A stretch of DNA of 64,000 nt from Antedon mediterranea (Eukaryota; Echinodermata; Crinoidea; Comatulida; Antedonidae), in the NCBI RefSeq assembly GCF_964355755.1, contig NC_092676.1, forward strand, positions 27,510,288 through 27,574,287, written 5' to 3'. Shown in pieces: positions 3,001 through 32,266 of this stretch. The translations under genes and the position numbers were made by a program. Every line of letters starts with the position of its first letter. Within the stretch, counting starts at the first letter, position 1. The notes below the pieces were generated by a model. That model did no database searches, was not told the origin of the DNA, and saw nothing but the letters and a program-made list of their open reading frames with translations.

Positions 3001-6000
3001 GGTTTATTTAAAAATTACAATCTGGCTTGATGAACATTTCTTTTTGATGTTTTGCAACAACTAGATATAGTATTGATATGATATGACAAGAGTACATACA
3101 TATTTTGGTGTTTATCAATATTAATGCATGATTAGACATTTGACGAACATTTCAAAAAACATTATTCAATCTTTGACCCGCTTATTGCTTTAGATGTTTT
3201 CATATTTATTCATAATATTTCCTATTTTATTGATCAATTTTTTTGTGTGTAAATATTTTAATATTACATATCCACGATCACCAAAAAGCATCTTTCACTT
3301 TATGTAAAAGTTATGTAAATTTATCTTATGAAGTAATTTCCTTTGAAAAGTCATTCAAAAGGTCATTCAATGCCTGTTTATATTAGATCTCAATTTTGTG
3401 AAAATACAGTTTTTATTTGGTAGTGATAACATAAAATTTACTGCATGTTAGAAAGTTAGATATTCAACTAAAAAATGTAATTTACCTAAAAAAGAAAATA
3501 TTGTGATATATTCACTGCATGAGTATTTAATGCATGCATTTCATATTTTGTGTGTTATTTGTGTAGAGGGGACAAGTTGTCTTCTGCAACTCGAAGCTTA
3601 GCGAGCAGAAGACAATCCAACGAAGGTATGCCTACGCGTAACAGTCTCTCAGATGCGTCGCCCTCCATTCGGAGGAAGGGGATTCCCCAGCCTCAGGTTA
3701 TTAACACAGTTAGCACGTAAGTAGTAATCACATGTTTTCGTTATTATTTTTATTTAAGCTCTGTTCAGACTATTACATTTTTCTTGACAAAAATATGAAA
3801 TTTGATTTTGCATAAAAAGTAATATTGCCTGAAAAATTTGGAATTTTTTTTATAAAGTTGACCAAACATGGCTGTGATAAAAATATATATTTTTGTCTTA
3901 GCGGTTTGTTATTTTTGTCAAGTAAAATTTAATAATTATATAGGAGTTTGGACTTTGTTTTATATTTTAATTCATTTGTCTGGTACAGTAATTTGAGTTG
4001 TGAAGAACAGTATTGAGGCTTGAGCACTTGAGTATAAACGTAATATCATTTACATGAATTAGAAAATGAATATTTACTAAACAAGATATTCTTTCTTTGT
4101 GTTTTCATTTTCGTTTTGTATATCCTGTATGCCACTAAATATAGTAATTTTTTTTATTGAAATATAAACATAATAATGAAATATATTGATAATATAGTGA
4201 TGATATAAACAAATTTAATTTAATATCGTGAATTAAAAAACCCAATTTATATTAAGTAACAAATAAAAAAGAGAATTAAAAAATTTATATAATCATGGAT
4301 CGTATTTTCTGTAAATAATTTAATATTTATAAATATTTGTTATAAAAACTTTAGTTTTTCTGATGTTCTTTAACTTTCTTCTGTCTTCACCTTATAGTAG
4401 ATCTTTTGATTAAAACTCTTTGATTTTCTAAAACGTAAATTTGGATTCTTATGATGTGCTTTTAGCTGTAAATAAATCATCAGGTCAGAGGTTAAATTTT
4501 AACCTTTAGACTTTTGACCTTTATAGAATCTTAATAGTATATAATGCATGCTTTCTACATTTGTTTGCTGTGTATATTTCGTTTTTCTTTTTAGTTTTTC
4601 TTTTCATTTCATTTTTTAAATGACTATTAGTGAAACAGTTCCCATCATCACCCCGCCCGGTTCACCGCCCCAAACTAGGCGTTCATCCGAGCAGAACGTT
4701 TTTTCACGATTGTACGCCCACACAAGTTCGCCCGCCCAAGCTACAGTTGACAGGTTTGTTTTCATCTCTCAATATTCTTCAAAAGCTGTTGCTCATTTTT
4801 TTCTCTGAGTTTTTCAACTTCCTTCTTCAAATCTTTCCTGCAACTCAATCATTTGCAAAGAAACTGTTTGTTTTTTCTTGTCGCAAACAATTGTTTCACT
4901 TTTGTTCTAATATTGCAAAAACGTGTTTGTCATGCCAAAAAAATGTTTTACTTATTATTGCAAAAATGTGTTTTTTCCTTTTCAATTTGTTTTTTGTTTA
5001 ACATATTTGTTGTCAATCATTTTTAAAAGTGACATTTTAGTGTTTACAACATCTGTAAATGGCACATTTACTTAATCCATATGTTAATTTTATTTATTTT
5101 ACTATGCGTTGTAAATTTTTTTTAGAAATATTTAAAAAAAATAATAAAATCAATTTCAATGACAGTAGAACCCATATTAAGGGGACACCTTTAAAGCTCT
5201 ATCAAACTAGTTTGACAAAAAAAGTGTGATGTGCCCAAATATGGTAGCGATATTCCCAAATATGGTAGTGATATGACATCATCATGTCCATATATGGGCA
5301 CATCACATTTTTTTGTCACATAAAGTTTGATAGTGTAGACAGAGCTTAAGATCAAACACAGCGTATGTCTTCTGAATAAGGTTGTCACGGTGTCAAAACA
5401 TTCCTCTCATGTGTTTCTTTGGAATGTGTACCCTTAATAAGGGTGTCCCCAGAATAGGGATGTCCCCTTAATAAGGGTGTCCCCAGAATAGGGATGTCCC
5501 CTTAATAAGGGTGTCCCCAGAATAGGGATGTCCCCTTAATAAGGGTGTCTCCAGAATAGGGATGTCCCCTTAATAAGGGTGTCCCCAGAATAGGGATGTC
5601 CCCTTAATAAGGGTGTCCCCAGAATAGGGATGTCCCCTTAATAAGGGTGTCCCCAGAATAGGGATGTCCCCTTAATAAGGGTGTCTCCAGAATAGGGATG
5701 TCCCCTTAATAAGGGTGTCTCCAGAATAGGGATGTCCCCTTAATAAGGGTGTCCCCAGAATAGGGGTGTCCCCTTAATAAGGGTGTCCCCAGAATAGGGA
5801 TGTCCCCTTAATAAGGGTGTCCCCAGAATAGGGATGTCCCCTTAATAAGGGTGTCCCCAGAATAGGGATGTCCCCTTAATAAGGGTGTCCCCAGAATAGG
5901 GATGTCCCCTTAATAAGTTTGTCCCCAGAATAGGGATGTCCCCTTAATAAGGGTGTCCCCAGAATAGGGGTGTCTCCAGAATAGGGGTGTCCCCAGAATA

Positions 6001-9000
6001 GGGGTGTCTCCAGAATAGGGATGTCCCCTTAATAAGGGTGTCCCCAGAATAGGGGTGTCTCCAGAATAGGGATGTCCCCTTAATAAGGGTGTCCCCAGAA
6101 TAGGGGTGTCTCCAGAATAGGGATGTCCCCTTAATAAGGGTGTCCCCAGAATAGGGATGTCTCCTTAATAAGGGTGTCCCCAGAATAGGGATGTCCCCTT
6201 AATAAGGGTGTCCCCAGAATAGGGATGTCTCCTTAATAAGGGTGTCCCCAGAATAGGGATGTCCCCTTAATAAGGGTGTCTCCAGAATAGGGATGTCCCC
6301 TTAATAAGGGTGTCCCCAGAATAGGGATGGGCTCTAAAGGAGGGTCTCTACAGATGTTTAAAACATTTTTTGTAAACTTTTAAAATGTCACTTTTAGTCC
6401 TTAAATATCTATATTAATCCATTTATTTGTTGTAAAGTTCACATAATAATATTTCAATATACTACTTTCCACTAATCATCATTTTTACCCATTCCAAATA
6501 ATGTGTTTATAAATGTTGTTGTTTTTTAATATTGTAACTAGTATTTATATATGCATCCTACAAAAATCATGTTTACTAACTACAGTACAATTTTTTTACT
6601 AATTATCAGTATTGAATATTTTTCTAATTCCTTAAAAAAGAAATTGAAGGAGATGTAAAATAAGAATTATTGGTGCTTTTTGTAGATTAGTAATTGATCA
6701 CGGCGTTCAGCGTATGTGCGGTAGATCCTCTCCCACTCCTATGACGCAATCAAAGTAGGTGCTAAGCACGTGGCATGTCTAACTTACATATTAACAAGTT
6801 AAAAGAAGAGAAACAACTCATTATTACTTTCCGTTTATTGAAAAAATTTGGTATATAGAATATTAAATTAATATCAATTTATAAATTAAATATTGATACA
6901 TATAATCTATATTGATATAAAATATAATCTAAGGTCTCTTAATGGCATGATTTTCAACAAAATTGTCATTGTAATAAAAATAGTCATTTTAATAAAAATA
7001 AAAGATTAATGCAAATATTTAAACATATTATAGACAAAGTTGCATGTCCAAAATATTGAACCATATTATCTAAATTCTAAAAAAAATAATAATGTTAATA
7101 ATATAATTAATGTTAAAATATTTGATTCAGATCACCTTCATTTGATGCCCATAGCTGTGCTTCTCGTCTTGTGCAGAGAGCAGCATCCCCTACCCCCAGG
7201 TCAGCCTCCCCAACTCCCAGGTCAGCCCAAGTAGTAGTGGAACAGCATATGTGTGCAGCTCGGTTGTCGCAAAGGGCTGGTTCGCCAACGCCACCAGCAG
7301 CTGAGAAGTATGTTGTAGCTCGCCTATTCCTGCATTGTGCTCAGATATCTTGCTGCATAAAGATTTTTTCTTTTGATTTTTTTTAATAATAAATTTTCTA
7401 ACACATGTAATTTTAACAAAATAATTTTCCAAATTCCAATTTAAAGTAAATCCTGGAATTTGGTGGTTAACCTGCTTGCTTACCAATCCCAGGGTTCTTA
7501 ATAATAATAATGGTTCAAATCCTAGAGTTGTTCTCATTGCAAAAACATACAAATTTTTGTTTACCATTTTTTACCAACAAAAAACAAAATGAAACCACAC
7601 AGGAGTGCATAAAGTTACAAAAATAGAACCTTAATTTTGGGCCCAAACAAGGTGTCCCCTTGGGTTGTCCCCTGAAGTGTTGACTATTGTGTTGAAATAC
7701 ATATTGTCCTTCGCCATTTCACTGCAAAGTGTCTCTTGTATAGAGGTTTCCCAAAGAGGTTCTTCTGTGTTATTTTATGAAATCTAATTTGTATAGGCTA
7801 CCTGCTCTCAGTTTACAGTAAGTGTATATTCTAGTCTCTTTCTCAACAGAGGTATATAAAAAACCAGACAGACTGGGCATGGTGTAATTTACTAGCATGC
7901 AAAAAAAAGGCTGGTCCGTAAAAGTATCATGCATGCTGGTTTTAAAAGAGCGAGAATGTTATATAACCTAATTCTCAATACTCTTCAAAATAAAGTTATT
8001 GTTCTTTGGCAAAATATAATTCATCTTGTATGCATCTATTTGTAAGGCTGCCTGACAAATAAATAAATAAATCTACTCTCTCCCTTGATTGTAAATAGTA
8101 TTTAGCATGTGGATGATAAACTCTTTTGTTTGTAAAACATTAATTAGAAATCGATACGGTAAGATAGTTTTAATTTAATTTATGCAAGACTAAAATGCAT
8201 TTTAATTACATATAGTATAAATAAGTATAAATCAAATTTAAGGTTTGCCAAAATTTACATTCAAAGATGTTATGCAAGAAACTGCAGCGGTAGAATTTGT
8301 ATTCATATATTTTTGATGCATAATATGCAATTAGAATATGAATTATTGTGAATACTCACAATTTTTTAATAAATATTGCAATATATTTAAATTATTGTTG
8401 TTTTTTTTTCAGAGGTACAATTAATCCAGTGACAGTGACGAATAAAAGCCAAGGCCAGAAGGCCCCACTTATTTGTACATACACTGCAGAGGGTCACACC
8501 AAGGCGGTCCTTTCCGTCCAAGCTACAGAAGATATGTTATTTAGCGGTTCAAAAGGTACAGTACAGTACAGTACAGTACAATATTAATGCTTACAAAATC
8601 CACAGTTCTAAGTTCAAATCCAAAATAAATATCATTAATGGTGTAAAATGTAGATTAAAAGGTTTTTAATGTTTTTGTTTGTTTATAAAACAGACCGAAC
8701 AGTGAAAGTTTGGAATCTGGACACTGGTCAAGAATTGCTGACCTTAGGAGGTCATCCTAATAATGTTATATCTGTACGTTATTGTAAGAGATTACAGCTT
8801 GTGTTTAGTGTATCTACTTCTTATATCAAAGTTTGGGATATCAGAGAAAATAGTGGAAAATGTATTAAAACACTAAGGTAAGGCTCTTCAAAACATAACA
8901 GCATTTTTCATCATACCCCTCACCCTGACTTGTGTGACTATTTTCAAGCTCTGTTTACACTTTCAAACTTTTTGTGACTAAAAAATGTAATGTGCCCATA

Positions 9001-17400: not shown

Positions 17401-20250
17401 ACCAGCCTCCCTGGTGTTGCTACAACTATATCTACCAAGCTACAGAAACAGCCCTCTGACCTAAAGTAAAGATGATACAAATTATAAAATGCTTATTGTT
17501 TACAGTAGCATTTCTATCGTAGTGATTTCAATATCGGGAAAATTGTTTTGTTTTCACCTTTGACGGACTAGTAGTTCTTGTTCCTTGGCAAATGGTTTTG
17601 AACCGGCGACAAGTGCTAGTTTGAGGGCAGTCTTTGTGCAATATGTTGAAAACACTGCGTAAACCTGGTCTGCTAATTCTTTTGTTGGTAAAACAATCAA
17701 GGCTCTAACTTGAGGTATAACACGGTCCAGTAAAGCCTATAATGGGTATAAAATGATTACATTTCAATTTCTATTTTGATCAAAAATAAGTTAGTGTTAG
17801 TGTTGCCCGAAAGCGCTGCTACTTTTTCTGGCTGTTTTACTTACAGATTTAGCTTTTTGCTTTTTTTATTTGTATCTCCATTGAGATCCAGCCACTGATA
17901 CCCACCGCATTGTCATTTTTCATTGCTTATTTTATCTTTCATCTCCATTGAGATCCAGCCACTGATAACCACATCATCGTCATTTTTTTCAGTAATTTGC
18001 TTTTGGATTTATATGTATGTATTACCTGTACAACTGGAACGACAAAAGCCAATGTTTTCCCGCTGCCTGTTGGGGCAGACACACACACGTCTCTAGGTCT
18101 GTAACCCACATTACCAATGTGCAATCCTAACTTCAACGAGGCCAATACTGTAGGAATCACTTTACTCTGAACTAAACAAAAATACAACCACCAATGTAAA
18201 TTAAAAAAACATAAATTATTGTTTTGATAAATATTGTTTGTTTTTTTAATTAAGGCAAATTTTATAAAAAGGCAAATTGCCAAAGATAACCATAAGCGAA
18301 TTCATTCACTATCCTTCGTGGCAATCCTGTCCACAAGACAAACATTACACAAGATGCTATACATAAACAAAGTCTTTTGGAGTGAAGTCGTAAATTGTCA
18401 TGAAAAAAATCCTGACATATGACCGGACTTGAACCCAGGACCTTTGGATTGGTAGCCAGGCATCATAACCACCAAGCCACTCCACCTCATTACATACTCA
18501 TGTAGGATAGTAATTTCATTTTGATTTCTGCCATAAATTAGCTTTGCCAATTACATCACTGTTTGATTTACATACACCCAGTCTCAAGTTAATACGTCCT
18601 CATTTGATGTTACCTGGGAAGAAATGAGTGATGTTATTCTCTTTCAGCATCGTTATGATACGTTGGTCAAGTCCTTTCATATCACGTACATCAGTCTGGT
18701 TGTGTTTGATGTCGTGATCAACGATTGTTGGTTGTGCCAACCAATCGGGAAGAACTCGTTGAACCTATACGAACATAAATAGTGTCATTATGATTGAAAT
18801 ATTTATTTTGATTATTTCTTATGAATGCATTGCTAGTAAAATCCAGGATAATTATACATAAGCGCAACTGTCTGGGGATCAGTGGAGTAACGACTATGAT
18901 GCTCACTGGCTAAACCCAGAGCTCTACCCAGAGTTGGAGGGCCCCTTAGGATTGCTAAACCAAGATATTTTGCTTTTTGAGTTACGCCACTGCTGGGGAT
19001 CCGACATTAGAATTAACTGATCAATAAGTGTATACCTTTTTCTTTTTCTTGTTTTCAACATCACCCAATACAGTAAACACATCTAAATCTTCATCTTTCT
19101 TTTCCACATCTTCTACATTCATGTCCTCCTCATCTTTGTCTTCCTCCATGGGACTATTAACATCTTCATCTTTAATGTCATCTTTCTCAGCTGTATCCTT
19201 TATCATTTTTACTTTCTGCTTTTTTATGTCCTGTTCATTATTTGATAATTCTAAATGATCACTTTCTTCTTCCTTTAACTTATTTTTCTTTTGTTTCTTC
19301 TTAGTAACTTTGTAATCTGTTATGTCATTATTAGATTTAACATGTTGTCTTTTTTTTCTTTCTAAATCTTTGTCGGTCTTACTTTCTTTATCATCTTCAT
19401 AAGATGAACTTGTCTTTTTGTTAACTTTATTTTTCGGTTTCTTTTTGATTGTTTTTGTTTGATCATTTGTACTATTTGTATTATCGTTCAATGTTTTACT
19501 TTTTTCTGTTCTTGCTTTAATCCTTTGCTGCAAGTTTTCTAACAAAGCTTGTTGATGTGATTTATTATCTGCAACACTGTCACCTTGAAATCTGGTTTAA
19601 AACAAATTAATTTACATTGAATTAAAAATATTGATTGTTGTAGTTTATACATAAAAAAATGATTACAAAGCTTATTTTGATCTCACTAAATGTACCTGGT
19701 AATTAATATTCATTTTCTAACAGAAATAATTAAAATCCATTATATATTGTTATTGTTAATAAAATAATAACAATTAGGACATTGTAAATCAGTAACGCGT
19801 TACAATTCATGGTTGACGTAAATGACTTATTTTGGAGTTGCACGTGTGGAGCAGTGAAAAAGAGTATCCAGTAGGCTAGTAAAATCACTAATTTGACAGT
19901 ATTATAAACAATTCATAAACAGATACTAGGCCTAGCCTAAATTTCAGAATGATATTAAACATGATGCTAGCATGTAATATTTGATAGCATAACATCCTAC
20001 CGAGCACTACCCGGCTTACATATACCTAAGCCTAGTATCAGATCAGTCGTCGCCCCACACTGTCTGTGACTTGCTCAAGTGCTGTCTAATAGCCTCTAGC
20101 TAGTAGAGTAGGCTCGCTGGCTAGGCCTAGCTAGCTAAAGATTAGTTTAAGACGTTTATGACGTATCAAAGTCATCTAAATGTCGATCTTACATATTCTA
20201 AATATTATCACAATTTAACCCACACACCTTTTTATAGTAAACAACGACAT
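14448..20250 (-). CDS. DDX51: ATP-dependent RNA helicase DDX51 (DEAD-box)
   Basis: Nucleolar DEAD-box helicase related to yeast Dbp6, acting in 60S ribosome assembly. Complete: 14 exons in frame, 680 residues (human about 666). Exons 5' to 3': 20250-20228, 19591-19036, 18764-18614, 18171-18026, 17736-17558, 17460-17349, 17207-17086, 16824-16803, 16398-16231, 16010-15895, 15655-15539, 15210-15045, 14898-14764, 14477-14448. The start is fixed by [11 protein letters not shown], which matches the family N-terminus and splices exactly onto exon 2. Exon 2 codes for a Lys/Asp/Glu-rich disordered tail. Helicase motifs in order: APTGSGKT (276-283), [20 protein letters not shown] (390-395), SAT (444-446), [15 protein letters not shown] (575-583), [10 protein letters not shown] (604-613). 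All catalytic residues are present, so it should be active. Exons 1 and 8 code only 23 and 22 bases. Confidence 0.97.
15790..15886 (-). mobile_element. tRNA-derived SINE fragment in a DDX51 intron
   Basis: On the minus strand: A-box-like TAGCTTGGCGGGT, B-box-like GGTTCAATTCT, then TTCTCATGGCAATGTCC. The layout matches the copies near 7.5 and 18.4 kb. It begins about 10 bases after the donor of exon 16010-15895. Confidence 0.5.
16065..16203. repeat. 70-bp tandem duplication in a DDX51 intron
   Basis: Two copies of a 70-base unit starting CATTTTCATGT (16065 and 16135), sharing GGGTGTCCATTTTGAA and GTCATATGTTTG. The right copy ends near the donor side of exon 16398-16231. Confidence 0.85.
16436..16540. 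mobile_element. Fold-back MITE, family 1, in a DDX51 intron
   Basis: Both ends are recognisable (AACTCTGTCTACAC and the inverted copy). Flanks TAA and TTA. It begins 38 bases upstream of exon 16398-16231 and is followed on the right by a 147-base block that also follows the copy at 55880-56019. Confidence 0.85.
16541..16687. repeat. Repeat block next to a MITE; second copy at 56020-56163
   Basis: It runs from TTAAAGCGTTAGTATAG to ATAGCAACGAAT and recurs almost unchanged at 56020-56163, directly after a family 1 MITE in both places. No coding sense or terminal repeats were recognised. Confidence 0.8.
18414..18490 (-). mobile_element. tRNA-derived SINE fragment in a DDX51 intron
   Basis: On the minus strand: A-box-like TGGCTTGGTGGTTATG and B-box GGTTCAAGTCC, the best tRNA-like match in the window. 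Related sequence continues leftwards to about 18290. Its similarity to the other copies argues for a SINE, not a tRNA gene. Confidence 0.55.
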
Positions 20251-20289
20251 GTTTGCTTTAAATTAACATAAACAACAGTTACAAAATAC

Positions 20290-20372
20290 TCAACGAGGTA
20301 AACGAGCTATATTGTGTAGTCGTTTATTGATAACTGAGAGCTATCAGTGTGTATAATCCTCGTACATAATTG
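20290..20372. repeat. Left outer arm of an inverted repeat around the satellite block
   Basis: The reverse complement of this stretch resembles 30065-30143: both contain TACGAGGAT, TGATAGCTCTC and GTTATCAA in the same order, roughly three quarters identical by eye. It also resembles a diverged monomer of the 97-bp satellite. It starts 40 bases upstream of the DDX51 start codon. Confidence 0.6.
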
Positions 20373-20575
20373 TTTCTTAGTTGTAATAAAGAACACATTA
20401 TTATAATATCAAGCATGTTATTATGATATACAAATTTATAGGTATCAATACTGATATTTTTACTTTAAAAAATTTTAATAAGTTTTTTAATAACACAGAA
20501 ACAACATTCTTAATTTAACAAATGATATGTAGTACTACTAAATCAATGTCTAATTGCATAAGGACTATGTGTACA

Positions 20576-23500
20576 GTATTATGATCAGTGTAGTTAAAAT
20601 TTGATAACTGAGCACGCATCTCACATCTACCTCATCAATAATTATTATTAATAATCTATATCACGTTGTTGAATATGATGAGTGTAGTCATAATTTGATA
20701 ACTGAGCACGCATCTTTTAGAATCTACGTCATCAATTTTAATATTAATATTATATATCACATTGTTGGATATGATCAGTGTAGTCATAATTTGATAACTG
20801 AGCACGTATCTTTTAATATCTACATCATCAATAATTATTATTAATAATCTATATCACATTGTTGGATATGATCAGTGTAGTCGTCATTTGATAACTGAGC
20901 ACGCATCTTTAAATATCTACCGCATCAAAATTAATATAAATAATCTATATCACATTGTTGGATATGATCAGTGTAGTCGTAATTTGATAACTGAGCACGC
21001 ATCTTTAAATATCTACCTCATTAATAATTTATATTAATATCATATATCACATTGTTGGATATGATCAGTGTAGTCAGAATTTGATAACTGAGCACGTATC
21101 TTTTAATATCTACCTTAATAATAATTTATATTAATATCATATATCACATTGTTGGATATGATCAGTGTAGTCGTAATTTGATAACTGAGCACGCATCTTT
21201 AAATATCTACCTCATTAATAATTTATATTAATATCATATATCACATTGTTGGATATGATCAGTGTAGTCAGAATTTGATAACGGAGCACGCATCTTTCAA
21301 TATCTACCGCATCAATTAATAATCTACATACACATTGTTGGATATGATCAGTGTAGTCAGAATTTGATAACTGAGCACGCATCTTTCAATATCTACCTCA
21401 TTAATAATTTATATTAATATCATATATCACATTGTTGGATATGATCAGTGTAGTCAGAATTTGATAACTGAGCACGCATCTTTTAATATCTACCTCATTA
21501 ATAATTTATATTAATATCATATATCACATTGTTGGATATGATCAGTGTAGTCAGAATTTGATAACTGAGCACGCATCTTTCAATATCTACCTCATTAATA
21601 ATTTATATTAATATCATATATCACATTGTTGGATATGATCAGTGTAGTCAGAATTTGATAACTGAGCACGCATCTTTTAATATCTACCTCATTAATAATT
21701 TATATTAATATCATATATCACATTGTTGGATATGATCAGTGTAGTCAGAATTTGATAACTGAGCACGCATCTTTTAATATCTACGTCATCAATAATTTAT
21801 ATTAATATCATATATCACATTGTTGGATATGATCAGTGTAGTCGTCATTTGATAACTGATCACGTATCTTTCAATATCTACCACATCATTAATTAATATT
21901 AATATTATATATCACATTGTTGGATATGATCAGTGTAGTCATAATTTGATAACTGATCACGTATTTTTTAATATCTACCTCAATAATAATTTATATTAAT
22001 ATCATATATCACATTGTTGGATATGATCAGTGTAGTCAGAATTTGATAACTGAGCACACATCTTTCAATATCTACCGCATCAATAATTCATATTAATATC
22101 ATATATCACATTGTTGGATATGATCAGTGTAGTCGTCATTTGATAACTGATCACGTATCTGTCAATATCTACCTCATTAATAATTTATATTAATATCATA
22201 TATCACATTGTTGGATATGATCAGTGTAGTCAGAATTTGATAACTGAGCACGCATCTTTCAATATCTACCTCAATAATAATTTATATTAATATCATATAT
22301 CACATTGTTGGATATGATCAGTGTAGTCGTAATTTGATAACTGAGCACGCATCTTTAAATATCTACCTCATTAATAATTTATATTAATATCATATATCAC
22401 ATTGTTGAATATGATCAGTGTAGTCATAATTTGATAACTGAGGACGTATCTTTCAATATCTACCTCATTACGAATTATTATTAATATCCTATATCACATT
22501 GTTGAATATGATGAGTGCAGTAATAATTTGATAACTGAGCACGCATCTTTCAATATCTACCTCAATAATAATTTATATTAATATCATATATCACATTGTT
22601 GGATATGATCAGTGTAGTCAGAATTTGATAACTGAGCACGCATCTTTAAATATCTACCGCATCAATTAATAATCTACATACACATTGTTGGATATGATCA
22701 GTGTAGTCGTAATTTGATAACTGAGCACGCATCTTTAAATATCTACCTCATTAATAATTTATATTAATATCATATATCACATTGTTGGATATGATCAGTG
22801 TAGTCAGAATTTGATAACTGAGCACATATCTTTTAATATCTACCTCAATAATAATTTATATTAATATCATATATCACATTGTTGGATATGATCAGTGTAG
22901 TCAGAATTTGATAACTGAGCACGCATCTTTCAATATCTACCTCATTAATAATTTATATTAATATCATATATCACATTGTTGGATATGATCAGTGTAGTCA
23001 GAATTTGATAACTGAGCACGCATCTTTTAATATCTACCTCATTAATAATTTATATTAATATCATATATATCATTGTTGGATATGATCAGTGTAGTCAGAA
23101 TTTGATAACTGAGCACGCATCTTTTAATATCTACGTCATCAATAATTTATATTAATATCATATATCACATTGTTGGATATGATCAGTGTAGTCGTCATTT
23201 GATAACTGATCACGTATCTTTCAATATCTACCTCATCATTAATTAATATTAATATCATATATCACATTGTTGGATATGATCAGTGTAGTCATAATTTGAT
23301 AACTGAGCACGTATTTTTTAATATCTACCTCAATAATAATTTATACTAATATCATATATCACATTGTTGGATATGATCTGTGTAGTCAGAATTTGATAAC
23401 TGAGCACGCATCTTTTAATATCTACCACATCATTAATTAATATTAATAATCTATATCACAGTGTTGGATATGATCAGTGTAGTCAGAATTTGATAACTGA

Positions 23501-23950
23501 TCACGTATCTTTCAATATCTACCTCATTAATAATTTATATTAATATCATATATCACATTGTTGGATATGATCAGTGTAGTCAGAATTTGATAACTGAGCA
23601 CGCATCTTTCAATATCTACCGCATCAATAATTCATATTAATATCATATATCACATTGTTGGATATGATCAGTGTAGTCGTCATTTGATAACTGAGCACGC
23701 ATCTTTAAATATCTATTTCATCAATAATTATTATTAATGTCTTATATCACATTGTTGGATATGATCAGTGTAGTCATAATTTGATAACTGAGCACGCATC
23801 TTTAAATATCTACCTCATCAAAAATTATTATTAATAATCTATATCACATTGTTGGATATGATCTGTGTATTCATAAATTGATTTAACGCATCTTTTATTA
23901 TCTACCTAATCAATAATAATTATTAATACTTAATGTTGGATATGATCTGT
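20576..23950 (+). repeat. 97-bp satellite array (left arm), about 35 monomers
   Basis: The monomer contains GGATATGATCAGTGTAGTC, then AATTTGATAACTGAGCACGC, then an AT-rich spacer, about 97 bases in all with some 89-base forms. Distinctive monomers recur at exactly 1,350 bases: TATCTACCGCATCAATTAAT at 21301 and 22651, CTACGTCATC at 21781 and 23131, GTCGTCATTTGATAACTGAT at 21841 and 23191. This is a higher-order repeat of about 14 monomers. The same monomer occurs inverted at 26985-28640. Confidence 0.95.
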
Positions 23951-24689
23951 GTGATTTTGTTAGATTTACTGTATACAAGAGATCGAGTCGATGGGTTTTG
24001 AAAATGTGTTATTCTTTTGTTCCTAATCACCCTATTGATTTGTATCCGTTTGCTGTTTAAATTTATACTTTTAAGAACGCATCGTTTATGATGAACGTGT
24101 GCCGTTGTAAAAATAAAAATATTCCATATCTTTTTATGTTTGATATGTATTGTAGAGGCCATCATGAGACATGCTTTGGCTTCTATTGAGGGTCCCAGTT
24201 CTTCTTAACAGAATAAATGTGCAGTGAATGAATTATTTGATAAATGAGGACGTGTGTTTTAACATCGATCTATACAGACCGTAATACTCTTCCAGAAATG
24301 ATATGTTGCTATAATAGGCCTATGACCAATTTCCATTACATTAATAATTCAATTAAGATTGGAAATGTGTCAGAAATACTAAAGAAATCCAGTAATCTTA
24401 TTGATTAATAATTATTTATACCACTTCTGATGAACGAACAGAAAACTAAACTTGCAGCCAATCAAAAAGCTGCTGTACTGTATAAGTAGGGAATTTTAAG
24501 TAGGAGTTGTTTTAAATGTCATTGGTCTCGGCTAATCAGTTATTGCCATTTGACTATGATAGGCATCCTTTATTACCTATAACCAGGGAAGAGTTAAATT
24601 TAACTCTTCCCTGCTATAACTATGGGTAGACCAAACAATAATAAAATATAATGACTTCCTTCACTTTTTACAACCTAGTTCGTGTTTTA
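23951..24689. other. Unique spacer between satellite arrays
   Basis: About 740 bases of non-repeated AT-rich sequence. The only notable item is the perfect 28-base palindrome at 24585-24612. No supported coding exon. Confidence 0.6.
24585..24612. repeat. Perfect 28-base palindrome
   Basis: Each half is AGGGAAGAGTTAAA and its exact complement, flanked by CTATAAC on both sides. A near copy lies at 53664-53701. Confidence 0.85.
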
Positions 24690-26930
24690 AAATGTCAATT
24701 TTGGATAAATTTACAGATTTTACCATTTAAACTGCGTAAACGTAATGCAAACTTTAAAAAAACACCCACAAACATCATCCAAACAACTTAATATTGATTA
24801 TACCACTACAAGAACTATAAAAGAAGACAATTTATGAAATCATTTCATTGAAATAGCTCTAGGTTTGATTTTTTAGGGTGAAAAATATCAATTTTTGGAT
24901 AAATTGACAGATTTTACCATTTAAACTGCGTAAACTTAATGCAAACTTTAAAAAATACCCTACAAACATCATTCAAACAATTGAATACTGATTATAGCAC
25001 TACTAGAACTATAAAAGAAGACAATTTATGAAATAATGTTATTGAAATAGCTCTAGGTTTGACTTTTTTGGAGTGAAAACGTCAATTTTGGATAAATTGA
25101 CAGATTTTACCATGTGAACTGTGCAAACTTTAAAAAAAACACCCACAAACATCATCTAAACCACTTAATATTGATTATACCACTACAAAAACTATAAAAG
25201 AGGACAATTTATGAAATAATTTTATTGAAATAGCTCTAGGTTTGAATTTTTTGGGTAAAAAATGTCAATTTTGGATAAATTTAAAGATTTTACCACGTAA
25301 ACTGCGTAAACTTAATGCAAACTTAAAAAAAACACCCCACAAACATTATTCAAACCACTTAATACTGATTATAGCACTACAAGAACTATAAAAGAGGACA
25401 ATTTATGAAATAATTTAATAGAAATAGCTCTAAGTTTGATTTTTTAGGGTGAAAAATGTCAATTTTGGATAAATTTACAGATTTCACCATTTCAACTGCG
25501 TAAACTTAATGCAAACTTTAAAAAAACACCCACAAACATCATTCAAACCACTTAATATTGATTATATCATTATTAGAACTATAAAAGAGGACAATTTATG
25601 AAATCATTTTATTGAAATAGCTCTAGGTTTGATTTTTTAGGGTGAAAAATATCAATTTTTGGATAAATTGACAGATTTTACCATTTAAACTGCGTAAACT
25701 TAATGCACACTTTAAAGAATACCCTACAAACATCATTCAAACAATTGAATACTGATTATAGCACTACTAGAACTATAAAAGAAGACAATTTATGAAATAA
25801 TGTTATTGAAATAGCTCTAGGTTTGACTTTTTTGGAGTGAAAACGTCAATTTTGGATAAATTGACAGATTTTACCATGTGAACTGTGCAAACTTTAAAAA
25901 AAACACCCACAAACATCATCTAAACCACTTAATATTGATTATACCACTACAAGAACTATAAAAGAGGACATTTTATGAAATAATTTTATTGAAATAGCTC
26001 TAGGTTTGAATTTTTTGGGTAAAAAATGTCAATTTTGGATAAATTTACAGATTTTACCACGTAAACTGCGTAAACTTATTGCAAACTTAAAAAAAACACC
26101 CCACAAACATTATTCAAACCACCTAATACTGATTATAGCACTACAAGAACTATAAAAGAGGACAATTTATGAAATAATTTAATAGAAATAGCTCTAAGTT
26201 TGATTTTTTAGGGTGAAAAATGTCAATTTTGGATAAATTTACAGATTTCACCATTTCAACTGCGTAAACTTAATGCAAACTTTAAAAAAACACCCACAAA
26301 CATCATTCAAACCACTTAATATTGATTATATCATTATTAGAACTATAAAAGAGGACAATTTATGAAATCATTTTATTGAAATAGCTCTAGGTTTGATTTT
26401 TTAGGGTGAAAAATGTCAATTTTGGATAATTGATAGATTTTACCATGTAAACTGCGAAAACTTAATGCAAACTTTAAAAAATACCCCACAAACATCATTC
26501 AAACAATTGAATACTGATTATACCACTACTAGAACTATAAAAGAAGACAATTTATGAAATCATTTTATTAAAATAGTTCTAGGTTTGACATTTTTGGGGT
26601 GATTATGAAATAATTTTATTGAAATAGCTCTAGGAATAAATTGACACATTTTACCATGTAAACTGTGCAAACTTTAAAAAAACACCCCACAAACATCATC
26701 CAAACCACTTAATATTGATTATATCACTACTAGAACTATAAAAGAAGACAATTTATGAAATCATTTTATTAGAATAGCTCTAGGTTTGACTTTTTTGGGG
26801 TAAAAAACCACTTAATATTGATTATAAAAGAAGACAACTTATGAAATGATTTTATTGAAATAGGTCAAAGTTTGACCTTTTTGGATAAATTGACAGATTT
26901 TAAAGTGTAAACTTTACAATGCAAAAAAGG
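24690..26930 (+). repeat. ~190-bp satellite array with four-monomer higher-order period
   Basis: About 11 monomers of 182-195 bases, each with GTCAATTTTGGATAAATT, ACTGCGTAAACTTAATGC and AACTATAAAAGA. Monomer starts near 24693, 24888, 25081, 25263, 25458, 25651, 25845, 26028, 26222 and 26415. Monomers four apart share private variants (for example ATCAATTTTTGG at 24888 and 25651), giving a 763-765 base higher-order period. The right end from about 26590 is truncated and scrambled. Confidence 0.93.
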
Positions 26931-26984
26931 CCATCTGCAAAAATCCTTCAAACCACTTATTATATTAGGACAATATTAATATTT

Positions 26985-28640
26985 GAAGCAGATATAAAAT
27001 GATGCATGCTCAGTTATCAAATGACTAGGCCTACACTGATATTTGATATTGGTATATATACAATTAATATTAATTATTGTTGAGGTAGTTCAAACTATGA
27101 TTACACTGATCATATCCAACATTGTGATATAGAATATTATTTTGGAAAAGGTAGATATTAAAAAACTAAACAGATCATATCCAACAGTTTGATATAGATT
27201 ATTAATATTAATTGATGATGCAGATATTAAAAGATTTTTGCTCAGTTATCAATTTATGACTACACTGATCATATCCAACAATGCGATATAGATTATTAAT
27301 ATTAATTGATGATGCAGATATTAAAAGATTTTTGCTCAGTTATCAATTTATGACTACACTGATCATATTGAACAATGCGATATAGATTATTAATATTAAT
27401 TATTGATGAGGTAGATATTAAAAGATGCGTGCTCAGTTATCAAATTATGACTACACTGATCATATCGAACAATGTGATATAGATTATTAATATAAATTAT
27501 TGATGAGGTAGATATTAAAAGATTTTTGCTCAGTTATCAAATTATGACTACACTGATCATATCCAACAATGTGATATAAATTATTAATAATAATTATTGA
27601 TGAAATAGATATTGAAAGATGCATGCTCAGTTATCAAATTATGACTACACTAATCATATCCAACATTGTGATATAGATTATTAATAATAATTATTGATGA
27701 GGTAGATATTAAAATATGTATGCTCACAGTTATCAAACTATGACTACACTGATCATATCCAACATTGTGATATAGGATATTATTAATTGTTATTGATAAG
27801 GTAGATATTAAAAAACTAAACAGATCATATCCAACAGTGTGATATAGATTATTAATATTAATTATTAATGAGGTAGATATTTAAGGATGTATGCTCAGTT
27901 ATCAAATTATGACTAACTACACTGATCATATCCAACAATGTGATATAAATTATTAATAATAATTATTGATGAAATAGATATTGAAAGATGCGTGCTCAGT
28001 TATCAAATTATGACTACACTAATCATATCCAACATTGTGATATAGGATATTATTAATAGTCATTGATAAGGTAGATATTAAAAGATGCATGCTCAGTTAT
28101 CATATTATGACTACACTGATCATATTGAACAATGCGATATAGATTATTAATATTAATTATTGATGAGGTAGATATTAAAAGATGCATGCTCAGTTATCAA
28201 ATTATGACTACACTGATCATATTGAACAATGTGATATAGAATATTAATAATAATTATTGATGAGGTAGATATTAAAAGATGCGTGCTCAGTTATCAAATT
28301 ATGACTACACTGATCATATCGAACAATGTGATATAAATTATTAATATTAATTATTGATGAGGTAGATATTAAAAGATGCGTGCTCAGTTATCAAATTATG
28401 ACTAACACTGATCATATCCTACATTGTGATATAGGACATTATTAATAGTTATTGATAAGGTAGTTATTAAAAGATGCGTGCTCAGTTATCAAATTTTGAC
28501 TACAAAGATCATATCCAACATTGTGATGTAGATTTATATTAATATTAATTATTGACGATGTAGATATTAAAAGATTCATGCTAAGTTATCAAATTTTGAC
28601 TACACTGATCATATTTGATATTGTGATTGATGATATATTC
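26985..28640 (-). repeat. 97-bp satellite array (right arm, inverted), about 17 monomers
   Basis: Same monomer as 20576-23950 but reverse complemented: GCTCAGTTATCAAATTATGA, then CTACACTGATCATATCCAAC. The copies are more diverged than in the left arm, with several shortened units. Confidence 0.93.
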
Positions 28641-29020
28641 ATATAAAGAGTGTACAATACTCACAGTATTTTTTAATCCATCCACATGAAGAAGAGACAC
28701 AAGAACAAGAGTTGTTTGAAATTGTGAAGCCTCACAACCTTACTAATTGTGATGACATTTAATATAATATTACAGCCATACACAAACAGTAAGGTAGTTA
28801 GGGTCACTACAATCTATTAAAATAATTAACATTAATTAACTGGAAACATTGTTAATTATCAGTTTGAGTTTGACTTTTGTCTCTTTTGTTGTAGAATTGA
28901 ATCTCTCTTTATCCATTGCTTTCAACCTGAAAATAAACAGGCCTAAATATAACCTTGGCATTAGCAATGAAATCAACTTACACACTGATGAATCTTAATA
29001 CTCCTACCTATCTAATATTT
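28641..29020. other. Spacer without recognised features
   Basis: About 380 bases of AT-rich sequence between the right satellite arm and the CTAG-rich tract. No coding or repeat signal found. Confidence 0.5.
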
Positions 29021-29900
29021 TATATAGATAGGCTGTCTATGACCCCCCAGCCTATCCCTAGCTAGGCCTATGCCTCTCTAGACCATTCTGCTGGCTAGCT
29101 AGCAAGGCCCTAGGTCTAGTCCTATAATTAATAGCACAGGTCTCATATAGATAGGCCTAGAGTGTTTAGACTGAGCCTGGTTATATGCCTATTTATTTAA
29201 CTAGGACTAGGCAGGCCTAATCAGCCTAAACTAAGGCCTAATAAACTAGTCTAGGCCCTAACTAAAATACATACATAGAGCTAGCTAGTTAGGCAGCCTA
29301 GGCCTAGACTTATTTATTAGCTAGTAAGTAGGCCTAGCTAGCTAGCCTACCAGTTCCCTAGTAGGGCCTAACCAGGTGGGCCTAGTAGCCTAGCCTAGCT
29401 AGTAGTAGTAGCCTACTACTTCTTTCTAGGCCTTAGGCCTAGCAAGACTAGGCTAGCCCTAGTACTAGTAGGCCTAGCTAGGCTATAGGCCTAGTAGTAC
29501 TAGGCCTACCTCTAGGCCTAAACTACTAGCTAGAGTAGCGAGATGCTAGCCTAACTAGGCCTAGGCCCTAGCTAGCTAGCTAGCCTAGGCCTAGCCTCTT
29601 TCTAGCTAGGCCTATAGGCTATAATAGGCTAGGCCCTAGCCTAGGCTAGGCCTAATCTGCCCTTTTTGGAGGCTAAAATATTGTCTGAAATAAGCTATGA
29701 CCTACAAATATAGCTTAACTATCTGTTAAGGGTGACACTGATGATGGGTAATCAATAAAATATGCTTCTAAATCTACCTTTTTGGCTTGCAATCATAATA
29801 TCCAGTCTAGCCTAGGCCTAGGCCTGCACGGATCAGGTAGCAAAACGAACGAAGTGAGAGCACAGAGGAGGAGGAGGCCTAGGGCCTAGGCCTAGGTTTC
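29021..29900. repeat. Tract dense in CTAG and TAGGCCTA
   Basis: About 880 bases built largely from overlapping palindromic words TAGGCCTA, CCTAGG, GCTAGC and CTAG, with no fixed period. Part at about 29640-29810 is ordinary sequence. No open frame with family resemblance. Confidence 0.85.
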
Positions 29901-30064
29901 AGGCAGAAAAGAACATCTTGAGTTTGTGTAATTATATATCTATTTACAGTTATTTTAAAATATATCCCTAACATTTAAAAAGTTATATATATTACTGATA
30001 ATTAATTGTAAGAAGGATACTCTACCTAATGATATTATCAATTAAATGTATTTTCCGTACGAAA

Positions 30065-30143
30065 TTAATTATATACGAGGATGGCATAAGTGATAGCTCT
30101 CTGTTATCAAAAAACAACTACATACTATACCTGAGGTAAACAT
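30065..30143. repeat. Right outer arm of an inverted repeat around the satellite block
   Basis: Inverted partner of 20290-20372 (shared TACGAGGAT, TGATAGCTCTC, GTTATCAA). It lies about 370 bases upstream of the FICD start codon. Confidence 0.6.
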
Positions 30144-30515: not shown

Positions 30516-32266
30516 ATGGAGGAGTCTATTAAAGATAGATCGGCTCTTATTTTAGTTTTTCTTAGTGGTATACTTCTAGCCTACGTTTTGTTGACAATCA
30601 CCGAACAAGCCAGACTTGGTGGTGGGAAACCAACGGGAGAGGAGCCATACAAACTTGGTCTGCTTGGCAGGCCCCTTAGAAACGATGGCTTAAAAGACTG
30701 GCCTGTCACTGTAAAGGAACGGCCATTTTTAAGACCAGGTATGTTTCTATTGAATTCAAATTTGTAACTATCTAACTATAGACTCTAGGCCTAATTAAAA
30801 AGCCTCTATTTATAATTTATATAATATACCTTTTTTTTTTAAATGTCAAATTAAATGATAGTCTACTATACTATTTAGTAGGCCTAGATAGATAAGATAG
30901 GCCTATCTATATTAATTACATATTTTAAATGCTGTATTATTTATTAAAATGATAATATACTGTATGCTATTATTTAGCCAAAAATACTAAGAAAGATAGT
31001 ATTTTTGATAATACATATAATAATATTGTAATACAGTATAATTTGTTCTTTTTTTTCTTTTTATTTAAAATAAATATAACACAAACAATATTTATTCACT
31101 GCAGGTTCAATTATTAACTTACTGTGTGAAGGAACAATAGACTCTTCACACTACTCATGAATGTGTCAAGCAATGGTGTTATTATAATGTATTCTTTGTT
31201 TTCAGATATAAAAGGTGAAAGTCTGGCTGCATTGAATCAAGCCTTAGATGCCAAACTTCAAGGCAGAAAAGAAAAGGCACATAAGCTGTTCCAACATGCG
31301 CTAGTCCTAGATCCAACTCACGTAGAAGCGTTGACGGAATATGGCGAGTTTATAGAAAGTGATGATGTCGTCAAAGCGGACCATTTATACACGTGCGCGC
31401 TAACTATCAACGGTAGTCATAGCAGAGCGTTAGACAACATGAAACGGACAACTGTGATTGTGAAAGACATCGATAATCAGATGTTGGAACGCATTGAAAA
31501 TAAACAAGAAGAATTCATGAAGGTACCATCACACCACCCAGAGCTGGATAAAGTAAAAAAAGAGTTGTACTATTTACATATTTACCATACGACTGCAATC
31601 GAGGGGAATACTATGACATTGGAACAGGTCCGGCACGTCATGGAAACGGGGATGGCCGTTCCCGGGAAAAGCATAATGGAACATAACGAAATCATTGGTA
31701 TGAGCGCCGCATTGAAGTACATTAACCAAACGATGTCGAACCGATTTGGTTCTTTAACGATTCGTGATATTCAAGAAATTCATCGTAGGGTTATGGGTAA
31801 TGTTGATCCAATTGAAGCCGGTAATTTTCGAACTAACCAGGTTTTTGTCGGTGATCATATTCCCGCAGCAGCATCGGAGTTAGATGAATTAATGCAAGAG
31901 TTCATTGATTGGTTGAATTCAAATGATGCGTTAGATCTTCATCCAATAGAACTAGCAGCTTTAGCTCATTATAAATTAGTTCATATACACCCGTTTGTTG
32001 ACGGGAACGGAAGGACTTCTCGGCTTTTGATGAATGTTATACTTATGCAAGCCGGTTATCCTCCCATAGATGTTAAAGTGACAGAACGACATGAATATTA
32101 TACTGCAATTAAGACTGGTAACCAGGGTGATATACGACCGTTTATCCGCTTCATCGCCAGGTGTACTGAGCGTATGTTAGACACCTATTTATGGCTTTAT
32201 TCAGATGCGCCAAATTCAACATTTCCAGAAATTGAAGATGGTAAAACCATCATTCTTGGCCCATAG
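30516..32266 (+). CDS. FICD: Protein adenylyltransferase FICD (Fic domain)
   Basis: ER membrane enzyme that adds AMP to, and removes it from, the chaperone BiP. Two exons, 30516-30738 and 31206-32266, joined as G plus AT to give Asp; 427 residues plus stop (human 458). Residues about 11-29 form a single hydrophobic membrane segment, as expected for a type II ER protein. Two TPR-like helical repeats span about 79-155. The inhibitory helix holds TTAIEGNTMT with Glu207. The Fic motif HPFVDGNGRTSR is at 336-347, with His336 as the catalytic base. Both the active site and the autoinhibitory Glu are intact, so the usual switch between AMPylation and deAMPylation should hold. The start ATG lies directly before the membrane segment. 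Nearest neighbour downstream is convergent TAF8. Confidence 0.97.

What the first reader, a model, noticed from the sequence alone, without database searches (positions are those of the whole stretch)
20290..30143. Nested inverted satellite block between two divergent genes
Two arrays of the same 97-bp satellite face each other (20576-23950 and 26985-28640) around a different ~190-bp satellite. Diverged inverted arms bound the block on the outside (20290-20372, 30065-30143). Long inverted arms made of tandem repeats are the hallmark of foldback transposons such as Galileo in flies. The alternative is local satellite growth followed by inversion. The block fills the shared upstream region of DDX51 and FICD.
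Basis: partly seen in the sequence, partly recalled or inferred. Interest (0 to 1): 0.75.

Follow-up and report, generated by a model that had tools for sequence, protein, structure and literature searches.

The report
Transposon carrying its own satellite arrays
The repeat block between two animal genes is a recently inserted, non-coding jumping gene, one of 28 copies found in this genome, whose inverted satellite arrays resemble multiplied pieces of the element's own end; it is a good place to study how transposons give birth to satellite DNA.

Summary
Window 20304-30133 is one copy of a dispersed, non-autonomous DNA transposon family. Genome searches find 28 left ends plus a decayed remnant and right ends at 26 places. 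A target duplication of 7-8 bp flanks 23 of 27 copies with both ends looked at; 0 of 702 mismatched pairs agree. All 15 fully read copies share one order: 73-bp imperfect terminal repeat, array A, middle, 194-bp satellite, inverted array A, right segment, G+C-rich part, terminal repeat. Two pairs of copies on different chromosomes differ by 1-2 substitutions in about 10.6 kb, so movement was recent. The new point: the 97-bp monomer aligns with the element's own terminal repeat over about 60 columns, in the same orientation (66-68% identity, most of it in two boxes). The satellite looks like a multiplied transposon end. One copy has about 59 kb between end and middle, array in most samples, yet keeps its 7-bp duplication. 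No transposase gene was found in the family. It resembles Tetris and Galileo but is filed as neither; superfamily unassigned, P the best guess.

The parts
20296..20303 (.). left target-site duplication AGGTAAAC
   Evidence: identical to 30134-30141; the other duplications of the family are 7 bp
20304..30133 (+). complete copy (9830 bp) of the transposon family
20304..20376 (+). left terminal inverted repeat (73 bp, starts GAGCTATA)
   Evidence: alignment of the two ends
20377..20579 (+). left subterminal unique sequence, about 0.2 kb
20580..23943 (+). left array A of 97-bp monomers, same orientation as the left terminal repeat; 34 matches to the monomer core
23944..24688 (+). middle segment
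24689..26807 (+). central satellite B, unit 194 bp; by eye every listed genome match (a capped part of 327) lies in a copy of this family
26958..28647 (-). right array A, inverted, same orientation as the right terminal repeat; shorter, less regular spacing; 12 core matches
28634..29003 (+). right segment
29004..29673 (+). G+C-rich AGGCCTAG-type segment
30061..30133 (-). right terminal inverted repeat (reads CAGGTATA on the - strand)
30134..30141 (.). right target-site duplication AGGTAAAC

Best explanation
The block is one insertion of a large, non-coding class II transposon. Shown: exact common ends (5'-GAG...CTG-3'), 73-bp imperfect terminal inverted repeats, 7-bp (here 8-bp) target duplications, a dispersed family with one architecture, and very recent spread. 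Inferred: a transposase made elsewhere in the genome cuts the element at these ends and inserts it with a 7-bp stagger. Also inferred: the 97-bp satellite arose when the inner part of the terminal repeat (positions 11 to about 71) was duplicated in tandem behind each end, so that each array points the same way as its own end; monomer number then changed by gain and loss of blocks, through unequal exchange or copying slips during repair. The most likely effect is that each element presents tens of extra sites resembling the end's binding region, as shown by experiment for Galileo; this step is not tested here. In one copy the left array has grown to tens of kilobases inside a still bounded transposon: a satellite being born.
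For:: the left-boundary query gives 30 matches; 28 are family copies (89-100% over about 250-280 bases) and none but the window matches outside the element. In 27 of the 28 the aligned end reads GAGCTATATTG at the window's position 20304; in c28 the same motif lies 117 bp further out behind a small insertion; right ends in one piece at 24 places, two more in two pieces; 15 of the 24 stop exactly at window 30133; 29 places with 0-1 mismatch to the inner end motif, the 28 left ends and the C10 remnant; 23 of 27 duplications against 0 of 702 mismatched pairs; centre base A or T in 22 of 23; same order in 15 of 15 fully read copies, nested inserts apart; end and monomer align over about 60 columns with 1-2 single-base gaps; plain shuffles reach the score 0 of 500 times in 6 of 8 comparisons, dinucleotide shuffles 0 of 1000 in 5 of 6; c02 and c03 differ at 2 of 10,564 sites, c07 and c10 at 1 of 10,600; c16 (C1:27182632-27255841) has 59.6 kb from left end to middle; 5 of 6 sampled 901-bp pieces are array throughout; duplication CAAATAA intact; 2116 monomer-core matches genome-wide (control 0), 881 of them in the 15 fully read copies.
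Against: No transposase linked to these ends was found. The likeness of monomer and end rests mainly on two boxes (GTGTAGTC and TTGATAACTGAG, equally spaced); outside them 22 of 42 columns agree, little for AT-rich DNA, so capture or convergence of binding sites is possible. The right end against the young left monomer is not clear of shuffles (13 of 500; 43 of 1000). Array length differences among nine young copies do not fit whole 97- or 89-base units better than chance (12 of 36 pairs within 2 bases; baseline 31%), so the mode of growth is not shown. The end-like half of the monomer is slightly better conserved than the rest in three of four groups, but in young left arrays it is not (0.953 against 0.954 and 0.991). 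The window's duplication is 8 bp. Four of 27 copies show no clean duplication.
Confidence: 0.85

Rival explanations
1. Satellite grew in place and part of it was inverted; the block is not mobile.
For: Tandem arrays in opposite orientation can arise this way; monomer number does vary.
Against: 28 copies with one boundary on unrelated flanks, target duplications in 23 of 27, same order in 15 of 15.
Confidence: 0.01
2. It is mobilised by a P-superfamily transposase, as Galileo is.
For: 7-bp duplication as in Galileo (passages of PMC2775673). The genome holds 35 matches to a P-type RNase H domain and 75 to THAP, among them three equal-scoring 794-aa frames; one of these elements has 47-bp inverted ends and a flanking repeat readable as 7 bp, though also as other lengths of 5-9. 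At C3 a P-type and a THAP domain lie between inverted arrays of a 16-bp repeat (C3:13620629-13624285), so the P-plus-repeats design may exist in this genome.
Against: None of those domains lies inside a copy (coordinates compared by eye); the ends of the one P-type element that I could define (CTGAGACAAC) do not resemble this family's; the 16-bp repeat showed no match to this element; no GTAGTAC target consensus.
Confidence: 0.5
3. It is a member of the Mutator/Foldback superfamily, like Tetris, Tm1 and FB.
For: Foldback-like arrays; non-autonomous; Tetris repeats also share a stretch with their own end (passages of PMC4079207).
Against: Duplications are 7 bp in 22 of 27 and 8 bp in 1, against 8-10 bp for Tetris and mostly 9 bp for Tm1.
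Confidence: 0.15
4. The arrays are neutral by-products of repair slippage, or a captured satellite, and have no role in transposase binding.
For: Young left arrays carry a consensus of their own at several sites, as local turnover would give; the end-like half of the monomer is hardly better conserved; outside two boxes the likeness to the end is weak.
Against: The two boxes and their spacing are kept in the consensus of all four monomer groups, in both arms, in the orientation of the end; Galileo repeats do bind the THAP domain (PMC3688188).
Confidence: 0.4
5. Copies were spread by segmental duplication.
For: Copies are long and nearly identical.
Against: Flanks are unrelated and repeated over 7-8 bp only.
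Confidence: 0.01

Closest known systems
Tetris (Drosophila virilis foldback transposon)
   Same: Non-autonomous; tandem repeats in inverted arms; the repeat unit shares a stretch with the element's own end (37 bp, about 80%); amplification inside the element seeds a satellite; no transposase found (passages of PMC4079207).
   Different: Duplications 8-10 bp there, 7 bp here; 220-bp unit there, 97 bp here; a second satellite in the centre here; about 59 kb between end and middle in one bounded copy here, against assembled arrays of up to 66 repeats there.
Galileo (P superfamily, Drosophila)
   Same: 7-bp duplications; tandem repeats inside long inverted arms; THAP binding sites in those repeats (passages of PMC3688188 and PMC2775673).
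   Different: Galileo has P-type transposase and duplication consensus GTAGTAC; neither was found here. The terminal repeat here is 73 bp; the arrays begin about 0.2 kb inside it on the left and about 1.4 kb inside it on the right.
Tm1 (Mutator/Foldback, root-knot nematodes)
   Same: Composite repetitive inverted ends.
   Different: 8-10 bp, most often 9 bp duplications and a Phantom-like transposase (passages of PMC3169594).
MITEs with internal tandem repeats in Xenopus (Xstir, miDNA4)
   Same: Tandem repeats riding on a DNA transposon (passages of a review, PMC12628747).
   Different: As described there, repeats internal to MITEs; inverted arrays resembling the ends are not described in the passages seen.
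Sea urchin TU elements
   Same: Foldback elements with tandem repeats in inverted arms and 8-bp duplications (recalled; no call gave this).
   Different: 15-bp repeats (recalled); no sequence comparison made.

Membership tests
Class II (cut-and-paste type) transposon | Terminal inverted repeats and fixed-length target duplication in many dispersed copies | tested here: met
Class II (cut-and-paste type) transposon | Encoded or trans-acting transposase identified | tested here: inconclusive
   Window copy has no frame of 100 aa or more; 6 of 15 copies have such frames, none family-wide; P-type and THAP domains elsewhere in the genome could not be tied to these ends
Galileo (P superfamily) | 7-bp target duplication | tested here: met
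   22 of 27 at 7 bp; window copy 8 bp; 4 of 27 none
Galileo (P superfamily) | Duplication consensus GTAGTAC | tested here: not met
   base counts; consensus from PMC2775673 passages
Galileo (P superfamily) | P-type transposase in some copies | tested here: not met
   none of the 35 listed PF21787 or 75 listed THAP matches lies in a copy; other P domains were not searched and 13 of 28 copies were not read through
Galileo (P superfamily) | Conserved terminal 40 bp of Galileo | not tested
   Galileo end sequence not fetched
P superfamily by homology | Ends similar to an autonomous P element of the same genome | tested here: inconclusive
   ends defined for one P-type family, and they differ; a second P-type locus lies between unrelated inverted 16-bp arrays
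Tetris | 8-10 bp duplication | tested here: not met
Tetris | Repeat unit shares sequence with the terminal domain | tested here: met
   (likeness of design; no comparison with Tetris sequence)
Foldback-type element (descriptive) | Long inverted arms made of tandem repeats | tested here: met

The most novel reading that the evidence does not exclude
A transposon that advertises itself by multiplying its own transposase-recognition end, by my estimate up to some 600 times in one copy (59 kb divided by 97 bp, less an insert), so that the process that helps it compete for a scarce transposase also turns single insertions into large satellite blocks. Nearly all of the 97-bp satellite of this assembly would then be transposon-borne, with copy c16 as a caught-in-the-act step from mobile element to satellite DNA.
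Probability: 0.33. Interest if true: 0.7.

Novelty: new variant of a known kind. Interest (0 to 1): 0.52.

Why it matters
How satellites arise and reach new chromosomes is an old open question. Here several stages stand in one genome: a remnant with one recognisable monomer (C10:3991940; ancestral or decayed), ordinary copies with 34-59 core matches in the left array, young copies whose unique parts differ by under 1% but whose left arrays hold 34 to 51 core matches, and one copy with about 59 kb between end and middle that still has its target duplication. Because copies are so similar, array change since transposition can be followed. The window copy also sits in the shared upstream region of two head-to-head genes, about 375 bp from the first ATG of the FICD upstream frame (30516), so an effect on expression can be tested.

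Tried and rejected
Search for an autonomous partner by shared ends: the end motifs found this family plus scattered hits (the list was capped at about 100 of 239). C8:6843906 has a 22-base end motif with one mismatch and no family sequence in 3.5 kb. C3:15272968 shares 39 bp and then diverges, probably a fragment. C10:3991940 is a decayed left end with one recognisable monomer near an RPE65-family exon. C4:23839509 and C1:34231359 share only pieces of the right end region.

P-type elements: three families looked at. Ends could be defined for the 794-aa family only. The 617-aa family showed no inverted ends in the fetched stretches. The 343-aa locus on C3 lies between inverted 16-bp arrays, and its relative on C6 (67% over 531 bp) lies next to an 0.9-kb palindrome of 14-bp repeats; whether these arms and the transposase pieces form one element is not shown.

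Frames of 100 aa or more occur in 6 of 15 copies: c07, c10, c11, c14, c15, c19. I tested four (those of c07, c14 and two of c19): none gave a Pfam family above cut-off; those of c10, c11 and c15 were not tested. c14 with c15, and c07 with c10, show near-identical frame beginnings at like places, so I read them as nested inserts that moved with the element; that they are LINE remnants is my guess by eye.

The two 97-base gaps cancel; their left arrays align throughout but for a 2-base gap. Also dropped: that array length changes by whole monomers. Confidence in the best explanation went from 0.88 to 0.85 and the novel case from 0.35 to 0.33 for this.

c16 as a false join: 73 kb is far from the usual 9-17 kb, but both ends carry CAAATAA. 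An assembly expansion of the array cannot be excluded without reads.

Of six papers I saw passages only; all others as search listings.

Rows dropped: monomer profiles used only monomers of exactly 97 bp (597 left, 90 right). c06 has a left end only: no middle, no listed satellite B, no right end; it is not among the 27. For c28 one search used a stretch that does not hold its right end; its true ends, seen, are damaged and by eye show no duplication. It is counted as a failure.
Full report
OBSERVATION. The block is as described. Tandem Repeats Finder gives the 97-bp array at 20580-23928, the 194-bp satellite at 24689-26807 and the same 97-bp unit in reverse at 27165-28614. The arrays are inverted to each other. 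The outer arms are terminal inverted repeats of 73 bp, 20304-20376 and 30061-30133, alike at 58 of 73 columns.

IT IS A TRANSPOSON COPY. The window lies at C7:27510288-27574287 of a 354-Mb genome in 18 contigs. A query over the left boundary (20100-20580) gives 30 matches: 28 family copies at 89-100% over about 250-280 bases, and two short partial ones. Of the 27 copies other than the window, 20 matches start at query position 205 (window 20304), six start 1-6 bases earlier and one later. Realigned, 27 of 28 read GAGCTATATTG at that position; the 28th, c28, has the motif 117 bp further out behind a small insertion. A query over the right boundary gives 24 right ends in one piece, the window included; 15 of them stop at window 30133 and eight at 3-12 bases before or 1-9 bases after it. 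Two further right ends come in two pieces. A pattern from inside the left end gives 33 matches: 29 with 0-1 mismatch, at the 28 left ends and the C10 remnant, and 4 with three mismatches; the reversed control gives 21. No copy matches the window further outside the element.

TARGET DUPLICATION. I looked at both ends of 27 copies and one end of a 28th. In 23 of 27 the bases just outside are a direct repeat: 7 bp in 22, 8 bp in the window copy (AGGTAAAC). Between ends of different copies 0 of 702 comparisons match over 7 bp. The middle base is A or T in 22 of 23 (the window's last 7 bases used). The four failures are c03, c13, c18 and c28. In c03 a 7-bp repeat (ATATAAT) appears if the last three bases CTG are taken as lost (my reading). 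In c13 the right end is rearranged. In c18 the last 12 bases of the right end are gone. In c28 the ends are damaged.

ARCHITECTURE. All 15 fully read copies (14 plus the window; 9.1-16.9 kb) have the same order, nested inserts apart: end, array A forward, middle, satellite B, array A reverse, right segment, G+C-rich segment, end. By ends and middle, 11 more copies look alike but were not read through. Among the 15 there is a young group of nine and an older group of six, 2.5-3.2% apart in four segments taken together; the nine differ by 0-0.9%. The left end segment alone is further apart, 90-93% identity for the older ones. c02 and c03, on different chromosomes, differ at 2 of 10,564 aligned sites; c07 and c10 at 1 of 10,600. 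The window copy has no frame of 100 aa or more in the element; 6 of 15 copies have one or two, none family-wide. The family is non-autonomous as far as read.

THE SATELLITE RESEMBLES THE END. The consensus monomer aligns with both terminal repeats, in one order, from position 11 to about 71 of the end, with one or two single-base gaps: 39 of 59 to 42 of 62 columns agree. Two boxes carry it, GTGTAGTC and TTGATAACTGAG, five bases apart in both; outside them 22 of 42 columns agree. With plain shuffles, none of 500 reached the score in 6 of 8 comparisons (two ends, taken from a young and an old copy, against the young left and young right consensus); in the other two, both of the right end against the left monomer, 13 and 2 of 500 did. 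With dinucleotide shuffles 5 of 6 comparisons had 0 of 1000 and the right end against the young left monomer 43 of 1000. Each array has the orientation of its nearest end. I infer that the monomer arose from the end; a captured satellite with like boxes is not excluded. The outermost ten bases of the end are not in the monomer.

ARRAY TURNOVER. Left arrays of the 15 copies span 3.4-7.1 kb, nested inserts included, with 34-59 core matches. Young copies hold 34, 35, 43, 43, 44, 48, 49, 49 and 51, so monomer number changes between nearly identical copies. Pairwise alignments show many gaps of 97 and its multiples and others that are not, but total length differences of the nine young copies do not fit whole 97- or 89-base units better than chance (12 of 36, baseline 31%). 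Monomers within a left array are 92-96% alike, left against right 88-91%, lower than within the left array in all 15 copies. In the four older copies with several right monomers, left against right is as high as right against right (0.905-0.908 against 0.898-0.904), so separate evolution of the two arms is suggested for the young group only, whose left arrays have a consensus of their own at several sites.

THE GIANT COPY. In c16 the left end is at C1:27182632, the middle at 27242233 and the right end at 27255841: 59.6 kb from left end to middle. Of six 901-bp samples, five match the family over 900 bases, as array with nine core matches each, and one over 144 bases. Both ends carry CAAATAA. 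At 97 bp per unit this is some 600 monomers, less an insert of unknown size.

IS THE SATELLITE ELSEWHERE? A 24-base monomer core with up to three mismatches has 2116 matches genome-wide and none for the reversed control. The 15 fully read copies hold 881, or 58.7 each. Ten further copies at that rate give about 590, c16 about 600, and the diverged C2 copy and c28 some tens: about 2100. Nearly all monomers of the assembly can thus sit in this family. This is an estimate; only the first places of the 2116 were listed. By eye, every listed match of satellite B (a capped part of 327) lies in a copy of the family, the C2 one included.

HOW IT LIKELY WORKS. Shown: ends, duplications, copies, recent spread. 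Inferred: mobilisation in trans by a transposase with a 7-bp stagger. P-superfamily enzymes fit best: Galileo makes 7-bp duplications (PMC2775673, passages), and this genome has 35 matches to a P-type RNase H domain and 75 to THAP, none inside a copy. One P-type element (about C1:2820999-2826549) has 47-bp inverted ends and a flanking repeat that can be read as 7 bp but also as other lengths of 5-9; its ends do not resemble this family's. Another P-type locus (domains at C3:13620769 and C3:13622452) lies between inverted arrays of an unrelated 16-bp repeat. [quoted passage not shown] By analogy the arrays here may gather transposase. Neutral slippage is about as likely, because the end-like half of the monomer is only slightly better conserved than the rest in three of four groups and not at all in young left arrays.

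GENE CONTEXT. FICD reads to the right; the first ATG in its upstream frame is at 30516, about 375 bp from the duplication. Helicase exons read to the left, nearest frame 19021-19596. Without the insertion the two would lie about 1.1 kb apart. An effect on either gene is possible and untested.

COMPARISON AND NOVELTY. By design it is a foldback-type, satellite-bearing transposon, closest to Tetris and Galileo. It is not filed as Tetris (8-10 bp duplications) or Galileo (no GTAGTAC consensus, no P-type domain found in copies). I call it a new variant of a known kind. Seven literature searches showed no description of it, but the host species is not known to me.

Noticed in passing
L075 2830-2916 and 6306-6486 (C3:13620629-13624285): Inverted arrays of a 16-bp repeat (GGGCGACTTTGCGATG) on both sides of a P-type transposase domain and a THAP domain: possibly a second foldback element, of P type. 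The same repeat is seen in L034 (copy c13).
   Followed up: partly
L076 3440-4321 (C6:11713439-11714320): A palindrome of about 0.9 kb made largely of 14-bp repeats, beside a relative of that transposase.
   Followed up: no
L055 2441-2830 (C10:3991940-3992330) and L055 3756-4262: A decayed left end of the family with one recognisable monomer about 0.9-1.3 kb upstream of a frame of an RPE65/carotenoid-oxygenase family gene.
   Followed up: partly
C3:15272968-15273006 (L054): A left end of 39 bp at 95% followed by unrelated sequence: an end fragment or a hybrid.
   Followed up: partly
L034 (C3:10877700-10878900), copy c13: The right end of this copy is internally inverted, as recombination between inverted arms might give.
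   Followed up: partly
window 24578-24629 within the middle segment: 52 bp with a palindrome (AAGAGTTAAATTTAACTCTT) present in the young group and the C2 copy but missing in the 14 older copies listed.
   Followed up: no
window about 24121-24234: A stretch of about 90-110 bp of the middle segment matches 12 other genome sites at 77-85%: a piece of another dispersed repeat.
   Followed up: no
about C1:2820999-2826549 (L069); domain also at C3:37950354 and C8:6208861: P-superfamily transposon with a 794-aa frame in three equal-scoring places; the two stretches compared are 99.4% identical; 47-bp inverted ends.
   Followed up: partly
window 5427-6317: Another tandem array, 26 copies of a 34-bp unit (TGTCCCCTTAATAAGGG...), 94% matches.
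   Followed up: no
C2:2792000-2800000 (L068): A more diverged copy (about 88% to the window over 2.3 kb) with a much shorter satellite B and no right segment in the fetched stretch.
   Followed up: partly
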